From NCBI GenBank assembly GCA_003345545.1, contig PRDH01000019.1:1-64000 (forward strand): DNA of 64,000 nucleotides, written 5' to 3'. Shown piece after piece: positions 6,529 through 15,313 of the stretch. Both the position numbers and the translations under genes were made by a program. Under the pieces are notes generated by a model. The model saw only the letters and a list, made by a program, of their open reading frames with translations. It made no database searches and was not told the origin of the DNA. Numbering within the stretch: the first letter of the stretch is position 1; each line of letters begins with the position of its first letter. The stretch comes from Candidatus Thorarchaeota archaeon. Its GTDB lineage: Archaea > Asgardarchaeota > Thorarchaeia > Thorarchaeales > Thorarchaeaceae.

Positions 6529-7590
6529 CTATAATTGGACTTCTGGCAGCTCACCGGCGAAATGGCATGCTACGATATGTGCATCGCTGATGTTTCTGTC
6601 TTCGGGTATCTCCCTTACACAGATTTCCTGTGCGTATGGACATCTAGGGTGGAACCGACAGCCGGATGGCACATTGATAGGACTTGGAGGCTCGCCCTTC
6701 AAAGACTCGATACGTCGTTTGATGGTGGGGTCTCCAGAGGGCACTGCTGAAATCAATGCTCGAGTGTACGGATGCAGTGGACTGAAAGCCACATCGTGTG
6801 CTGGCCCCAACTCCATGATTCTCCCAAGATACATGATTCCAATTCTATCAGCAATATATGTTGCAACAGCCAGGTCGTGGGTGATAAACAGATACGTGAG
6901 TCCGAGCTCTTCACGCAGAGTCAACAACAGGTTCAGGATTTCTGCACGTATGGACACGTCAAGCATTGAAACTGGCTCATCAGCCACCATGAACTCAGGA
7001 TGCAGAATAAGCGCCCTGGCAACAGAGATTCTCTGTCTCTGTCCTCCAGATAGCTCATGGGGATACCTGTCAATATAGTCTTCGGCCGGAGTCAGGGCAA
7101 CGCTCTCCAGTGCTTCGAGGACTCTTTGGCGTCTCTGACTTGGCATCAGCGGTATCTTGTGAACCATAAGCGGCTCTTGCACTATGCTGAAGATGCTCTG
7201 CTTCGGGTTAAGGGATTCGTAGGGGTCTTGGAATGTAATCTGCATGCGCTTCCTGAGGTTCTTGATTTCATTTCTGTCAAGGGTCGCCAAGTTCTGACCT
7301 GCATAGAATACCTCACCATCCGTAGGAACCTCCAGGTGGAGAATGCATCTGCCTGTTGTAGTCTTCCCACAACCAGATTCTCCTGCCAGAACAAGTATCT
7401 CTCCTTTCTTGATGTCGAAAGTCACTCCATCGACTGCTTTCACAAAGAGCTCCTGCCTATACAGCATTGACGATAGGAAACCCGTATTGACTGCAAACCA
7501 TTTTCGCATGTTCCTGACGGCAATCAGAGTATTGCCATCCTTGACTTCCTCGGAACCCTGTAGAACTCTCGATTCATCTGTTGTCATCAT
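6529..7590 (-). CDS. Dipeptide/oligopeptide ABC transporter ATP-binding protein (DppF/OppF-like)
   Basis: Walker [10 protein letters not shown], signature LSGGQRQRISVARAL, C-terminal [14 protein letters not shown] motif. Confidence 0.95.
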   Translation of the reverse strand: MMTTDESRVLQGSEEVKDGNTLIAVRNMRKWFAVNTGFLSSMLYRQELFVKAVDGVTFDIKKGEILVLAGESGCGKTTTGRCILHLEVPTDGEVFYAGQNLATLDRNEIKNLRKRMQITFQDPYESLNPKQSIFSIVQEPLMVHKIPLMPSQRRQRVLEALESVALTPAEDYIDRYPHELSGGQRQRISVARALILHPEFMVADEPVSMLDVSIRAEILNLLLTLREELGLTYLFITHDLAVATYIADRIGIMYLGRIMELGPAHDVAFSPLHPYTRALISAVPSGDPTIKRRIESLKGEPPSPINVPSGCRFHPRCPYAQEICVREIPEDRNISDAHIVACHFAGELPEVQL

Positions 7591-7593
7591 CTA

Positions 7594-8733
7594 TCACTCC
7601 AAGTCTATTTCAATCTCGCCTCTAAGCTGCTCAGCAAAGTGACAGGAAACAAACCTACCCGGTTCAACCTCCTGAGCTACCGGGTCATCCTTCGTGCAAA
7701 TGTCTTGCGCATATGGGCATCTAGGATGGAACCTGCAGCCCGTTGGAGGTGAGATTAGGTCTGGTGGAGACCCTGGAATCGAAGTGAGTTTCTTCTTTTC
7801 TGCCTTCACCATACTCGGGATTGCACCCACTAGTCCAGTGGCATATGGATGAATTGGGTCCTTGAATACTGATACGACATCAGCCAGCTCAACGATTTTG
7901 CCAGCATACATGACTGCGGTCTTATCACAGGTTTCGGCAATGACACTCAGGTCGTGTGTGATGAGAATGAGCGACAAGCCAAGATCTTTCTGGAGCTTCT
8001 GCATCAGCCTCAGAATCTGTGCCTGGATTGTGACGTCAAGTGCAGTGGTCGGTTCGTCAGCTATGACGAGATCGGGATTACAGGCAAGAGCCATAGCAAT
8101 CATGGCTCTTTGACGCATTCCTCCCGAAAACTCATGGGGATAGTTGTGAATGCGACCGGGGTCAAGACCAACCATCTCGAAGAGCTTAGCACAACGGTCT
8201 AGTGCCTCTTCCTCGGTCACGTTCTCATGCATGAGGATTGCTTCTGCAATCTGTTCTCCGATTTCAAATACGGGGTTCAGCGCATTCATGGCGCCTTGGA
8301 AGACGATAGCTACGTTCCTCCAACGGATGTCACGCATCTCCTTGGCGGTCTTGCGAATTAAGTCTTCACCCTTGAAGTACACGCTTCCACCAATGATATT
8401 TGCTGCAGGCGGGAGAAGTTGCATAACTGAATATGCCAAGCTTGACTTTCCACAACCACTCTCCCCAGCAAGTCCGATGGACTCACCAGGTTCCAGCGCC
8501 AGGGAAACGTTGTCGACTGCTTTTACAAGACCCTTCTGTGTTTGGTAGTACATCCTAAGATTACGAATGTCCAGCAAGGGCATGATTGTACACTCCATCG
8601 AGCCAATAGTGGCCCTGGGCAGGGCATCCGCCTCGCCCTTCTTGGGGTACGCCTGCCATGAGGTCGGCTTAAATATGTTGCTTTCAAAGACATTCTTCCG
8701 AGGGTCGTCCGACAGCAGCAAACGCAATGGCAT
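7594..8733 (-). CDS. Dipeptide/oligopeptide ABC transporter ATP-binding protein (DppD/OppD-like); true start possibly the internal MPLLDIRNL
   Basis: Walker [10 protein letters not shown], signature [29 protein letters not shown]. Confidence 0.95.
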
Positions 8734-9366: not shown

Positions 9367-10953
9367 TTGTCCGGGTCCCATAAGGGTTGGAAAGATCGTA
9401 ATTGGTACGTTAGTATCACTGGTTTCTGGAGAGAGTATCGCAAACATAAGATTGGATTAGTCGGCCTGGCTCTAATCATAATCTTCCTGGGCATGGCTGT
9501 ATTTGCTGATGGGATTATCACTCATAGTCCATCGCCAACCGCGAAGGTCGCTCCTGCCTATCTCATGCCATCATGGCTGTCAGTCTTTGATCCAAATGGT
9601 GTGATAACGGGCGAAGTCTTGCCAGATGCGGATCTCGATGAAACGCCAATTATCCAGGCAAATGGAACCAGTTCTGAATTCAGCGGACTGCATGTTCCCC
9701 GAGGCGAGAGTGTCAGTGACAGTTATGTGAACTTGACATGGACGCATACAGCTGGGACTCAGCTTGACTTTGGCATTGATCCAGACGGAATTCGAGCTGA
9801 CTATAGTGATTTCGTTTACTTTGAGCAGGATTTCACTTGGCTCTATAATAGCCCACCAAGTGATGTGAACATGTCTATCTTCTATAGCACGAGTCTAACT
9901 GGTGATTTTGTTCCAGGTGCTCAGGAAGGAAATAGTCTGATGTTGAGAGTCTATGTCTGGCTTATTGACTCCTCGGGCGAATGGACAAGAGTGTATGAAT
10001 CCCGAGATGCTGCGTATGTCGAAGAGCTGCAAATGCGACGCATCAGTATGAACCCTGTCAGTATCGAGTCTGTCTTTGATGGCATGGCTATGACGAATGG
10101 TACACAGGAAGATCCTACAGATGTTGTCCGACTTGTAGTCGGTCTTGCGCCTTATCGTTGGTTCGACAGTAGTTTCTACAGCTCTGGTAATTACACCTAT
10201 CCTTGGCAGTACTACAATGGCTCGGTAACGGTCAAGGTCACCAAACTGCAGATGGTTGCCTACGGGGAGTACTTTGGAGTCATGGGCACCACGAACTGGG
10301 GGGCCGATGCCTATTCGCAGTTGATATATGGTAGCAGAATCTCCCTCACTATTGGTGTTCTTGCCACTGGCCTCTCGACCCTAGTCGGTGTCATTGTTGG
10401 AATGGTTGCTGGCTATTTCGGTGGCAAGGTTGACGAAGTGTTGATGAGAGTCGTCGACTTCCTGCTAGTTATTCCAGGTTTGCCTCTGATGATGGTGCTG
10501 GCGGCGTTTCTGGGAGCAAGGATAGAAAACATCATCATCGTCATCGCAATATTGGGATGGACCGGAACGTCGCGGCTCATACGGTCTCAGGTCTTGGCCG
10601 AGAAGAATAAGGCCTATGTCGAGTCAGCCCGAGCGATTGGTGCCTCCGACACCTACATCATGTTCAGGCATATTTTGCCCAACGTGACACCAATCCTATT
10701 TGCCAATATCACTCTAGGTGTCGTCGGTGCAATTCTTTCAGAAGCAGGACTATCATTCCTTGGCCTGACCAATCCCGAAGACCCAAGCTGGGGCAGAATG
10801 CTTGCTGATGCTGTTGCCGGTGGAGCCTTTAGTGGTGGTGCATGGTGGGTGGTTCTCTTCCCTGGTCTCATGATTACTTTGCTCTCGCTTGCTTTCACAT
10901 TCGTGGGGCATACATTAGACCAAGTGCTCAATCCACGACTGAGGGAAAGGTAG
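9367..10953 (+). CDS. DppC/OppC-like ABC permease with large extracytoplasmic insertion
   Basis: 528 aa; C-terminal permease core YGSRISLTIGVLATGLSTLVGV...EAGLSFLGLTNPEDPSWGRML; ~200 aa polar insert between TM1 and the core; TTG start. Confidence 0.9.
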   Translation: MSGSHKGWKDRNWYVSITGFWREYRKHKIGLVGLALIIIFLGMAVFADGIITHSPSPTAKVAPAYLMPSWLSVFDPNGVITGEVLPDADLDETPIIQANGTSSEFSGLHVPRGESVSDSYVNLTWTHTAGTQLDFGIDPDGIRADYSDFVYFEQDFTWLYNSPPSDVNMSIFYSTSLTGDFVPGAQEGNSLMLRVYVWLIDSSGEWTRVYESRDAAYVEELQMRRISMNPVSIESVFDGMAMTNGTQEDPTDVVRLVVGLAPYRWFDSSFYSSGNYTYPWQYYNGSVTVKVTKLQMVAYGEYFGVMGTTNWGADAYSQLIYGSRISLTIGVLATGLSTLVGVIVGMVAGYFGGKVDEVLMRVVDFLLVIPGLPLMMVLAAFLGARIENIIIVIAILGWTGTSRLIRSQVLAEKNKAYVESARAIGASDTYIMFRHILPNVTPILFANITLGVVGAILSEAGLSFLGLTNPEDPSWGRMLADAVAGGAFSGGAWWVVLFPGLMITLLSLAFTFVGHTLDQVLNPRLRER

Positions 10954-11058: not shown

Positions 11059-12186
11059 TTGACATTTTACTTGTATCGGTACTTAGTATCTCTATGTAGC
11101 TCGAAAACTGGAGTGACTTTGATAATGGGACTTCGAGAATATGTCATTCGACGATCAATCTACATGTTTCTACTCGTAGTAGCTGTCGTTTGTTTCAACT
11201 TCTTCCTCTTCAGACTCCCGACATTCATGTTCGGGGCCAATCCAATCAGCCTGATGCTCAGCGACGAGCTTCGCCAGAACCTGACACAGGAGCTCCTAGA
11301 GCAGATGTTCCAGAACTTTGGCCTTGTACCTGATCCTGATATTTTCGATTGGATCTACATGTTCTGGAGATACGTTGTCAGCATGTTCTCGGGCAATTTC
11401 GGAGTTTCTTTCTTGACCCAACGACCCGTGATGGATTCGATTGTGGAACGTCTGCCTAACACCTTGTTATTGATGGGCACATCCTCAATGGTTTCGATAC
11501 TCCTGGGAATCTGGACTGGTGTGAAGGTGGCTGCTGACCCTGGATCACGAAAGGATGTCAGTGCAGTCACTGTAGCTCTCTTCATTTATGCCTTGCCCGT
11601 TTTCTGGTTGGGGATGGTGCTCTTGCTGTTCTTCGGTTTCATGCTTCCAGAGTGGACACAAGCCGTGTGGGGAGTTCGTATCGGGTTTCCGCAGTATGGC
11701 ACTATCAGCTATGAGGTCTGGGAGGCCGCCAGAAACAACCCGCTGGGCGCCCTCATGGTCGCGGGCGACGTGCTTCACCATCTCTTCCTACCAATGATCA
11801 CTCTTGGGATAGGTGGATATGGGGGATACTTCCTCTTTATGCGGAACAACCTGATAGATGTAATGACAGAGGACTATATCTTGACAGCGCGTGCAAAGGG
11901 TCTAGACGAGAATCAAGTGCTCTACAAGCATGGTCTAAAGAATGCCATGCTTCCTATGGTCACTATCATTGCGATGAACTTTGGTTTTCTCATTAATGGA
12001 GCGACACTCACAGAAACAGTGTTTACGTGGCGGGGTCTAGGGCGTTTCATATTCGACAGCCTATTGCTTATGGACTACCCTGTCATCCAGACAATCTTCA
12101 TGATCATTGCAATCACCGCAATATTGGCAAACTTCGTCGCAGATTTACTCTACGGAGTACTAGATCCTCGAATCAAGTACGGGTAG
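11059..12186 (+). CDS. DppB/OppB-like ABC permease
   Basis: GLREYVIRRSIYMFLLVVAVV, FLTQRPVMDSIVERLPNTLLL, ILTARAKGLDENQVLYKHGLKNAMLPMVT; true start probably M of MGLREYV. Confidence 0.93.
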   Translation: MTFYLYRYLVSLCSSKTGVTLIMGLREYVIRRSIYMFLLVVAVVCFNFFLFRLPTFMFGANPISLMLSDELRQNLTQELLEQMFQNFGLVPDPDIFDWIYMFWRYVVSMFSGNFGVSFLTQRPVMDSIVERLPNTLLLMGTSSMVSILLGIWTGVKVAADPGSRKDVSAVTVALFIYALPVFWLGMVLLLFFGFMLPEWTQAVWGVRIGFPQYGTISYEVWEAARNNPLGALMVAGDVLHHLFLPMITLGIGGYGGYFLFMRNNLIDVMTEDYILTARAKGLDENQVLYKHGLKNAMLPMVTIIAMNFGFLINGATLTETVFTWRGLGRFIFDSLLLMDYPVIQTIFMIIAITAILANFVADLLYGVLDPRIKYG

Positions 12187-12437: not shown

Positions 12438-14291
12438 ATGCTTTCAAAACGTAATACAAGGTTGGTGGCTATCACCTTTGCGGCAGCTTTTCTTCTCATG
12501 GTAGCATCCCCTGCTTATGTACAGGCAGTGGATCCTACTACAGAGAGTTTGAAGATTGGCCCGTATATAGACAAAATTGTATACCAGGTGATTACTACCC
12601 AAGATGCAAGGGTTCTGGCGATGCAGGCCGGGACGATTGACATGGACAACAGTTACTTCGACCCATCGTACTATACTACCCTTGCTGGAAGTCCAAACAT
12701 CGATATATACAGTGCCCGGCGACTAGGTTATGGTCATATCACGATCAACTGTCGTGATGCTCCGTTGAACGAGAGTGTGCTGAGAAGAGCCTTTGCCTTC
12801 GCGTTTGACAAGACCAGAGTCACTGATGAGGTAATGAATGGTTGGAACCAAGAACATGATTCCTTGGTACCTTTTGACAATCCTTACTGTATTGAGGATC
12901 AGCTGTTACCCCACTACTACACTGCTATGGTGACGGAGGGTAACGCACTGCTCAACGCATCTGGAAAATTCCCATATCTGGACCCAGCAGCCTCAAGTAG
13001 CGTGAGGACATACAAGGGTCAACCAATAGATCCTATCAAGATTGAGTACTCCTCAGTTGATGCTATTCCACGTGGTACCGCGCAGATCGGCGTTGATGCC
13101 CTACTCGCACTCGGCATCCCGGCTATTCCAGGACCTGCGAGCTTCAACGAGTACATCTCAAGACTGGACCAGCATGGCGATTATGACATGGTCTTCTACG
13201 CTCTCAACTACTTGTCCGACAGTGTCGACTGGCTCGCACGTACGTACCGGTCAGACTGGGCTGATGTTAACTACCAGAATCCATGCAATTTCAGGAACGC
13301 AACCTTCGACTCAATGATACCTCAGCTTCTCTACAGCACGACCACAGATGCAATTGCCAATGCTTCAGCTTGGATGCAGAAGATTCTCCATGAGCAGGTT
13401 CCAAGACTTGTCTGCTATGTTAACACCTATAACATGGCCTACAGGACTGACAAGTTCACTGGGTTTGTCGCTGACGCTGCCAGATACATCGTAGGTCCCT
13501 GGACCATGAGAAAGATCCACAACATTGGTGGCACTTTTGGTGGTACACTTACAGTCGCCCTCTCTCAGGAACCTGACAGCTTCAACATATTCGTCACAAA
13601 CTCTGCCTACGCAGCAGCCGTCCTGGAGAACCAGTGGCCACAGCTCTACATGCGTGGTCCCGACCTCAAGCCATTCGGAGATCTGGCTGAGAGTTGTACC
13701 ACAGAGACACATGCTGACAATCCTGACGTTCCCAGTGGTCATACTCGGTTCACTATCGACATAGTCCAGAATGCAACCTGGAGTGATGGCGTGAAATTGA
13801 CCGCTGATGACGTAGCATTCACGAACACCTATTACTTTGAAAGCTACCTCTATGGGAACCCGGCTGGAGCAACCATGGGTGACCTGGTTGCAGCCTATGC
13901 ACCGACCCCATACAGAGTCATCGTTGAGTTCAGCACCGTGTCATACTGGCACTTCCAGAACTTCGCCTATAACTCGATCATACCCAAGCATATCTTCAAA
14001 GAGGGTGCTGGAATAGGTTATGCAGGATGGAACATCTGGAACCCGGGATTTGACCCAGCCCAGCCCAACGTGAACTGTGGACCCTTCCACCTCACCAGCA
14101 TGGAGGCCGGTGAGTTCTATGAGGTCTCATATAACCCAACCTTCTACTACGCCCCTAGCCGCCCAACGACTACGACCACACTCCCAACTACAACACCTGG
14201 TCCAGATTGGACATTGGCCCTTGTAGCTGGAGCTGTAGGAGCCGCAGTTGTGATTCTCGTTGGTGGCTTTGTTCTGTTCAGGCAGAAGTAG
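12438..14291 (+). CDS. SBP_bac_5-type peptide-binding protein with apparently circularly permuted domain order, signal peptide and C-terminal TM anchor
   Basis: 617 aa; IDKIVYQVITTQDARVLAMQAGTIDM precedes GTLTVALSQEPDSFN...WSDGVKLTADDVAFT; Thr-rich linker plus TM at the C-terminus. Confidence 0.88.
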   Translation: MLSKRNTRLVAITFAAAFLLMVASPAYVQAVDPTTESLKIGPYIDKIVYQVITTQDARVLAMQAGTIDMDNSYFDPSYYTTLAGSPNIDIYSARRLGYGHITINCRDAPLNESVLRRAFAFAFDKTRVTDEVMNGWNQEHDSLVPFDNPYCIEDQLLPHYYTAMVTEGNALLNASGKFPYLDPAASSSVRTYKGQPIDPIKIEYSSVDAIPRGTAQIGVDALLALGIPAIPGPASFNEYISRLDQHGDYDMVFYALNYLSDSVDWLARTYRSDWADVNYQNPCNFRNATFDSMIPQLLYSTTTDAIANASAWMQKILHEQVPRLVCYVNTYNMAYRTDKFTGFVADAARYIVGPWTMRKIHNIGGTFGGTLTVALSQEPDSFNIFVTNSAYAAAVLENQWPQLYMRGPDLKPFGDLAESCTTETHADNPDVPSGHTRFTIDIVQNATWSDGVKLTADDVAFTNTYYFESYLYGNPAGATMGDLVAAYAPTPYRVIVEFSTVSYWHFQNFAYNSIIPKHIFKEGAGIGYAGWNIWNPGFDPAQPNVNCGPFHLTSMEAGEFYEVSYNPTFYYAPSRPTTTTTLPTTTPGPDWTLALVAGAVGAAVVILVGGFVLFRQK

Positions 14292-14431: not shown

Positions 14432-15313
14432 ATGAGAGTGATGAATATCAACCGATCACGGCTGACGATACTAGTTGTTTCAGCACTTCCTTTGGCGATT
14501 GGCTCAGTCTTGGCGATTCTTGTTCTCGACGCTGCCACAATAGGGGACATACTGCTCATCAACACGCGACCAGTTACAATAGATGAACTTGTGATTCAGA
14601 CTGGAGTATCTGTTGGCCTTGGAACATTGATTGTCTTTTCATTATTCTATGCTATTGAGCGACAGGGACCTGGTGCAAGGAGAGCATTTGTAGCTCTTGT
14701 AGTTTCACCAATCTTGACTGCTGCATTTTTTCTCTTGGGGCAATCGCTGCTATTCGTCCTCTTCAGAGGAACATCAACCTCCATAATTCCGAGTATCCTC
14801 TCCTTTGCCTCTCTTGGTGTTTTGCTCATGTCATTCGTATTCATTATGATAGATTCCGTTCCACCAGTGATGAGGAACGTCTTCGTAGCGTTCTACGCGA
14901 GTGTCTTTGGGACATTTCTAGGAGTAATGTCGATAACGCCAAGCATGTTTGTCTTGGTTGTTGCGGTTGTCTTGGAAGACTTCCTTCTTACTCGCCATTC
15001 TCCTGCAGCCCACGCTGCAGCATTGACAGATACACCGGGAGATGATCCTTTTGACTACACAAGAATACAGACCAAGAGGGTCGCTGTCGGAGCTGGCGAT
15101 TTCATTGCCTTCTCACTTATCGCGGCTCACTCTTTCATCTTCTTTCCAATCTATGTCTGGGCTATGTCAGTCGTGCTGGCTCTCGTAGGCATCGCAATCA
15201 ATGCAGCAGTTCTGGCCGAGGAGGACAAGATTCTCCCGGGGATTCCACTTCCAGCAATCCTCTCCCTCTTCCCATGGATTGCCCACATTGTGAGCTACAC
15301 TCTCCTCATTTGA
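14432..15313 (+). CDS. Polytopic membrane protein; candidate presenilin/SPP-like GxGD intramembrane aspartyl protease
   Basis: 293 aa, ~8-9 TM; VVLEDFLLTRHS, VAVGAGDFIAFSLIAAHS (GxGD), LPGIPLPAIL near C-terminus (PAL-like). Confidence 0.55.
   Translation: MRVMNINRSRLTILVVSALPLAIGSVLAILVLDAATIGDILLINTRPVTIDELVIQTGVSVGLGTLIVFSLFYAIERQGPGARRAFVALVVSPILTAAFFLLGQSLLFVLFRGTSTSIIPSILSFASLGVLLMSFVFIMIDSVPPVMRNVFVAFYASVFGTFLGVMSITPSMFVLVVAVVLEDFLLTRHSPAAHAAALTDTPGDDPFDYTRIQTKRVAVGAGDFIAFSLIAAHSFIFFPIYVWAMSVVLALVGIAINAAVLAEEDKILPGIPLPAILSLFPWIAHIVSYTLLI

What the first reader, a model, noticed from the sequence alone, without database searches (positions are those of the whole stretch)
12438..14291. 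Naturally circularly permuted peptide-binding protein (SBP_bac_5)
Seen: in canonical DppA/OppA-type proteins the order is GTLTVAL..EPDSFNP ... WSDG.PLTADDVAFT ... GPF.....YD.NP.YY, then IDKIV...I.D..ARVLAMQAGEIDM ... LGY..I.FN.RD.PL.D...RRA.A.A.DK. Here, after the signal peptide, the second part comes first (aa ~40-360) and the canonical N-terminal part follows (aa ~364-576), then a Thr-rich linker and TM anchor. The cut falls where NPTFYYAPSRP would normally join YIDKIVYQVI. Inference: circular permutation, possibly by duplication and partial deletion of a two-copy gene, with secretion and anchoring signals retained.
Basis: partly seen in the sequence, partly recalled or inferred. Interest (0 to 1): 0.8.

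Follow-up and report, generated by a model that had tools for sequence, protein, structure and literature searches.

The report
Reshuffled binding protein, recurrent circular permutation
A nutrient-capturing surface protein of an Asgard archaeon has its two halves in swapped order along the chain; the swap is real, conserved across a large family of such proteins, and a second, different swap of the same protein has arisen repeatedly in other archaea and in bacteria.

Summary
Window 12438-14291 encodes a 617-aa secreted, C-terminally anchored SBP_bac_5 (PF00496) protein in which profile positions 145-360 precede positions 10-146; both segments pass Pfam's cut-off. It is not an assembly error: the order recurs in four other Thorarchaeota MAGs, a paralogue in the same genome, and 44 of 47 genomes of its family carry a strong match. 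The gene sits in a conserved dppF-dppD / dppC-dppB cluster as its only SBP, so it most likely is that importer's receptor. Canonical SBPs coexist in the genome.

The picture is broader than the finding. Asgard genomes hold all three cyclic orders of blocks N, C1, C2: canonical N-C1-C2, this C1-C2-N ("class B"), and C2-N-C1 ("class C", cut near PF00496 position 288), the last also in haloarchaea and alphaproteobacteria. Class C arose several times; one within-genome pair matches at 43% and 38% identity in swapped order. Single-chain tandem SBPs fit permutation by duplication. Ligand, structure and advantage are untested; both AlphaFold runs failed.

The parts
12438..12530 (+). signal peptide region (aa 1-31) of the permuted SBP
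   Evidence: hydrophobic segment and AxA-like site read from the sequence; signal-like N-terminus in 71 of 76 class B ORFs
12549..13523 (+). blocks C1+C2 (aa 38-362): canonical C-terminal part, placed first
   Evidence: PF00496 145-360 at 12558-13247; C1/C2 block HMMs
13509..13538 (+). junction of the old C- and N-termini (aa ~358-367)
   Evidence: gap between blocks is 4 aa (median) in 76 class B ORFs
13527..14165 (+). block N (aa 364-576): canonical N-terminal part, placed second
   Evidence: PF00496 10-146 at 13698-14165; GTLTVALSQEPDSFN start read directly
14166..14216 (+). Thr-rich linker (aa ~577-593)
   Evidence: sequence; also in relatives
14217..14279 (+). C-terminal transmembrane anchor (aa ~594-614)
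   Evidence: sequence; C-terminal TM-like segment in 67 of 76 class B ORFs
11059..12186 (+). DppB/OppB-type permease
   Evidence: PF00528 E 2e-39; NCBIfam Opp2B/Opp4B/DppB matches below equivalog cut-offs
9367..10953 (+). DppC/OppC-type permease with a ~250-aa insert between OppC_N and BPD_transp_1
   Evidence: PF00528 E 1.8e-29 at aa 341-526, OppC_N at aa 20-56
7594..8733 (-). DppD/OppD-type ATPase
   Evidence: NCBIfam NF007010 E 8.4e-102, below its cut-off
6529..7590 (-). DppF/OppF-type ATPase
   Evidence: NCBIfam NF008453 E 1.3e-109, below its cut-off

Best explanation
The gene encodes a naturally circularly permuted SBP_bac_5 (cluster C) solute-binding protein that serves as the membrane-tethered receptor of the Dpp/Opp-type ABC importer encoded beside it. 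It is exported by its signal peptide, folds into the usual two-lobed binding protein with the old termini joined by a few residues and new termini opened in a loop, stays on the cell surface by its C-terminal helix, and hands its ligand to the DppB/DppC permease. The order most likely arose once for most of this family, from a canonical Asgard SBP, by tandem in-frame duplication and loss of the outer parts; the same kind of event has produced a second cut (C2-N-C1) several times elsewhere. Shown: the order, its conservation, the gene cluster, three coexisting cyclic orders, recurrence on the tree. Inferred: the fold, the transport role, the duplication route. Unknown: the ligand.
For: PF00496 out of order with both parts over the cut-off. 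Same order in four named Thorarchaeota MAGs; 44 of 47 genomes of the family have a match at E <= 2.1e-80, the listed ones running collinearly through both halves. Same order in five family-level groups f1, f8, f9, f21, f28. Dpp genes, whole or in part, beside the orthologous SBP in 11 f1 loci including the window. Tree of block-rotated sequences: 19 of 20 class B rows in one clade (96/89), sister to canonical f14/f16 copies (100/99). Single-chain tandem SBPs: G195 four canonical copies in 2781 aa, G086 two, G133 C2-N-C1-C2-N. Old termini joined with a median 4-residue gap.
Against: No structure: the two AlphaFold runs had 7 and 10 permitted rows and gave mean pLDDT 33 and 40, so the fold rests on homology. 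Many class B genes are not beside a transporter. The DYxDP motif, whose Asp I recall as the peptide-amine site of OppA/DppA, is absent in class B, so a peptide ligand is unproven. No partly redundant intermediate was found for class B.
Confidence: 0.85

Rival explanations
1. Assembly or binning artefact: a chimeric contig or a mis-joined tandem pair.
For: The genome is a MAG in 82 contigs.
Against: The same order occurs in many independent assemblies of several genera and family-level groups with intact ORFs, including single-contig genomes G126 and G177.
Confidence: 0.01
2. The protein is permuted but is a surface or sensory binding protein and not an importer receptor; the gene-cluster linkage is incidental.
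For: Many class B copies are orphans or tandem arrays without transporter genes; some are fused into chains over 2000 aa; the OppA/DppA-type Asp motif is missing.
Against: The window gene and its orthologues sit beside Dpp genes in 11 loci of at least six genera, with no other SBP there.
Confidence: 0.12
3. The two halves pair between neighbouring molecules (domain-swapped dimer or chain), not within one molecule.
For: Sequence alone cannot exclude it; tandem arrays and single-chain tandems are common.
Against: Old termini are joined by about 4 residues, as expected if they already lay close in one fold; each protein holds exactly one copy of each block.
Confidence: 0.06

Closest known systems
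Canonical SBP_bac_5 / cluster C binding proteins (AppA 1xoc, Lmo0135 5isu, DppA 1dpp, OppA 1b05, NikA 1zlq)
   Same: Both halves are homologous to PF00496; Dpp/Opp-type transporter genes beside it; exported and tethered.
   Different: Chain order C1-C2-N instead of N-C1-C2. With a C2-N junction profile none of the listed solved structures is matched across the junction (best 60 of 116 shown).
TpMglB-2 (Tp0684) of Treponema pallidum, 'Type Ic / Cluster Bc' (PMC4990184)
   Same: A naturally circularly permuted, membrane-tethered ABC-importer binding protein with permuted relatives in other species; its authors raise membrane anchoring as a possible cause.
   Different: Cluster B (type I) sugar-binding protein, not SBP_bac_5; different cut.
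Class C permuted SBPs (C2-N-C1), e.g. WP_222609512.1 of Halobaculum and WP_207415789.1 of Roseomonas, annotated only as ABC transporter substrate-binding proteins
   Same: SBP_bac_5 proteins with permuted order, beside dppBCDF-type genes.
   Different: Cut near PF00496 position 288 instead of 145; several origins; present outside Asgard archaea. I found no paper describing them.

Membership tests
SBP_bac_5 (PF00496), by homology | whole-protein score above Pfam's gathering cut-off (32.4 bits) | tested here: met
   119.6 bits; each part alone passes, 78.7 and 46 bits
Canonical cluster C SBP (DppA/OppA type) | collinear order N-C1-C2 | tested here: not met
   profile 145-360 precedes 10-146; filed as a permuted variant, not a canonical member
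Canonical cluster C SBP (DppA/OppA type) | exported or tethered outside the membrane | tested here: met
   signal-like N-terminus and C-terminal TM by sequence and hydrophobicity
Canonical cluster C SBP (DppA/OppA type) | partner Dpp/Opp permeases and ATPases | tested here: met
   whole or in part in 11 loci
Canonical cluster C SBP (DppA/OppA type) | Asp for the peptide amino terminus (OppA D419 / DppA D408, from memory) | tested here: inconclusive
   DYxDP motif present in many Asgard canonical copies, absent in class B; not required of all SBP_bac_5 proteins
Canonical cluster C SBP (DppA/OppA type) | two-lobed three-domain fold | tested here: inconclusive
   AlphaFold runs with 7 and 10 rows gave pLDDT 33 and 40
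Natural circular permutation | homologous segments in cyclically shifted order relative to a relative, each once | tested here: met
   for class C also a within-genome pair
Cluster Bc (TpMglB-2) | type I sugar-binding protein with a permuted segment | tested here: not met
   the only significant Pfam and PDB matches of the window protein are SBP_bac_5-type proteins

The most novel reading that the evidence does not exclude
The SBP_bac_5 protein has been circularly permuted repeatedly in nature at two hot-spot loops (PF00496 ~145 and ~288), giving all three cyclic orders within one archaeal phylum and one of them across archaea and bacteria, driven by in-frame tandem duplication of surface binding proteins and kept because moving the termini changes where the receptor is tethered.
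Probability: 0.35. Interest if true: 0.75.

Novelty: new variant of a known kind. Interest (0 to 1): 0.62.

Why it matters
SBP_bac_5 is a very large importer-receptor family, and its domain model assumes one chain order. Three cyclic orders in living genomes, one of them recurrent, are a natural experiment on which loops of a binding protein tolerate new ends and on how circular permutants arise. Annotation by the best profile stretch silently truncates such proteins. Canonical and permuted paralogues within one genome make the functional effect directly testable.

Tried and rejected
AlphaFold2 on A1 (7 rows) and A5 (10 rows): pLDDT 33 and 40, pTM 0.27 and 0.31; not used, so no fold search was run. 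Stops reported inside matches looked like recoding; in the loci whose match lies on the printed strand they are the ordinary terminal stops (minus-strand loci were printed in the wrong orientation there and not checked one by one). A stop at the junction of one L003 copy is a single TGA in one MAG, not a split-gene design. The 1382-aa and 1276-aa frames in G177 and G164 looked like fused permuted pairs; separate ORFs of about 630-655 aa were found there. A 'C2-N-C1-C2' order came from a short spurious C2 hit in one locus fetched three times. The search for related loci with A3 failed for lack of conserved stretches. Class B was not found outside Asgard in the plasmid collection, a limited sample. 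Open-access literature searches found no permuted SBP_bac_5. The first IQ-TREE run timed out.

Full report
OBSERVATION. The ORF at 12438-14291 (+) is intact, ATG to TAG, 617 aa. PF00496 matches it in two stretches in swapped order: profile 145-360 at 12558-13247 (E 3.5e-22) and then profile 10-146 at 13698-14165 (E 3.8e-12), each over the 32.4-bit cut-off. phmmer against the PDB shows the same swap, e.g. AppA residues 210-305 against query 40-137 and AppA 77-208 against query 433-570.

NOT AN ARTEFACT. A paralogue in the same genome (C37, 57% identity) and copies in four other named Thorarchaeota MAGs (49-56% best-segment identity) have the same order. In a survey of 196 genomes of the phylum, 44 of the 47 genomes of the window's own family-level group (f1) have a match at E <= 2.1e-80, and nearly all listed f1 matches run collinearly through both halves. 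Outside f1 the same order is found in groups f8, f9, f21 and f28, with PF00496 itself giving e.g. 143-339 followed by 2-141 at G177:C1:1205460-1207112. Canonical copies (profile 2-356, 3-365, 15-342) coexist in the window's own genome.

A SECOND PERMUTATION. With the protein split into blocks N, C1 and C2, the diverse profile A3 and block HMMs showed a third order, C2-N-C1 ('class C'), in single ORFs of groups f5, f9, f12, f16, f17, f21 and f23. PF00496 confirms it independently: G031:C53 289-363 then 1-288, G177:C1 298-364 then 2-294, G031:C52 288-364 then 2-294, and others in G103 and G164. A scan of all loci held, some of them overlapping, gave 92 class B, 41 canonical and 39 class C ORFs. 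In the plasmid collection the class C query L096 matched single collinear pieces in haloarchaea (Halobaculum, Haladaptatus, Halorussus, Halomarina) and in Roseomonas haemaphysalidis; Nitratireductor also proved class C. Those with annotation have permease genes next to them, with full permease and ATPase sets in Halobaculum and Roseomonas. Vibrio, Cytobacillus, Meiothermus and Agrobacterium came out canonical. None of the listed solved structures is matched across the C2-N junction.

RECURRENCE. Blocks were aligned separately, concatenated in canonical order and analysed with IQ-TREE (74 rows, 499 columns, LG+C20+F+G4 PMSF). Class B: 19 of 20 rows form one clade (96/89), sister to canonical copies of f14/f16 (100/99). 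The f8 copy pairs with a canonical f12 copy (99/93), and a single class B clade is rejected (AU p 0.006), so a second origin of the same cut is likely but rests on one divergent row. Class C is scattered: at least five changes are forced by well-supported branches, and a single clade is rejected (AU p 2.5e-45). The clearest case lies inside one genome: class C L160 and canonical L155 (sisters, 100/100) match 201-538 to 46-381 at 43% identity and 54-197 to 403-549 at 38%. The tree is unrooted and counts of changes do not tell gain from loss.

ROUTE. Permutation by duplication predicts tandem copies in one chain. They exist: G195 has four canonical copies in a 2781-aa ORF, G086 two (contig end), G133 a class-C-phased chain C2-N-C1-C2-N (contig end). 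Permuted genes also lie in tandem arrays (L005, L186, L193). No partly redundant single-gene intermediate was seen. The mechanism has a review in PMC3320104 (found; not read in full).

FUNCTION. The window locus is a complete Dpp/Opp-type set: DppF- and DppD-type ATPases (6529-7590 and 7594-8733, minus), DppC- and DppB-type permeases (9367-10953 and 11059-12186, plus), then the permuted SBP, with no other SBP. The cluster, whole or in part, is found beside the orthologue in 11 f1 loci, the window included, among them named MAGs L004 and L006 and genera g1, g2, g3, g6, g8 and g9. So the window protein is most likely that importer's tethered receptor. Other class B genes are orphans or arrays, and some are fused into chains of more than 2000 aa, so not all need be importer receptors. 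Class B lacks the DYxDP motif whose Asp, from memory, binds the peptide amine in OppA/DppA; the ligand is open.

STRUCTURE. Only window and the search for related loci sequences could be folded; 7 and 10 rows gave pLDDT 33 and 40, which says nothing for or against the fold. The short junction (median 4 residues) fits old termini that are close in space. From memory of OppA domain limits, the class B cut lies in domain I and the class C cut in domain III; this was not tested here.

PRECEDENT AND NOVELTY. A naturally permuted, tethered binding protein is known: TpMglB-2 of Treponema pallidum, cluster B, whose authors also raise membrane anchoring as a cause (PMC4990184). I found no paper on permuted SBP_bac_5 proteins (open-access PMC only). 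I therefore call it a new variant of a known kind, with the recurrence and the three coexisting orders as the unusual part.

Noticed in passing
window 14432-15313 (+): Membrane protein with GAGD and PLPAIL motifs, weakly presenilin-like (PF01080 E 0.003, below cut-off), directly downstream of the permuted SBP; conserved there in 11 f1 loci including the window. A GxGD-type intramembrane protease beside a single-span receptor would be worth testing.
   Followed up: partly
window 9367-10953 (+): DppC-type permease with a ~250-aa insert between its first TM segment and the permease domain; ORFs of similar length occur in the other f1 clusters. Possible docking partner of the permuted SBP.
   Followed up: no
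L143, L144, L147, L148, L170, L171: Haloarchaeal and alphaproteobacterial SBPs with the class C order; the annotated ones are named only ABC transporter substrate-binding protein.
   Followed up: partly
L124:2625-10967, L123:1423-4389, L196:1-2910: Single-chain tandem SBPs: four canonical copies in 2781 aa, two copies in 989 aa (contig end), and a class-C-phased tandem (contig end).
   Followed up: partly
L074, L075, L076, L077: Permuted SBPs at the N-terminus of very long open frames (about 2300-2600 aa) with unidentified C-terminal extensions.
   Followed up: no
L003:6090-6092: In-frame TGA exactly at the junction of the two halves (GT*GGT) in one permuted copy of a Thorarchaeota MAG; looks like a nonsense mutation or an assembly error.
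   Followed up: yes
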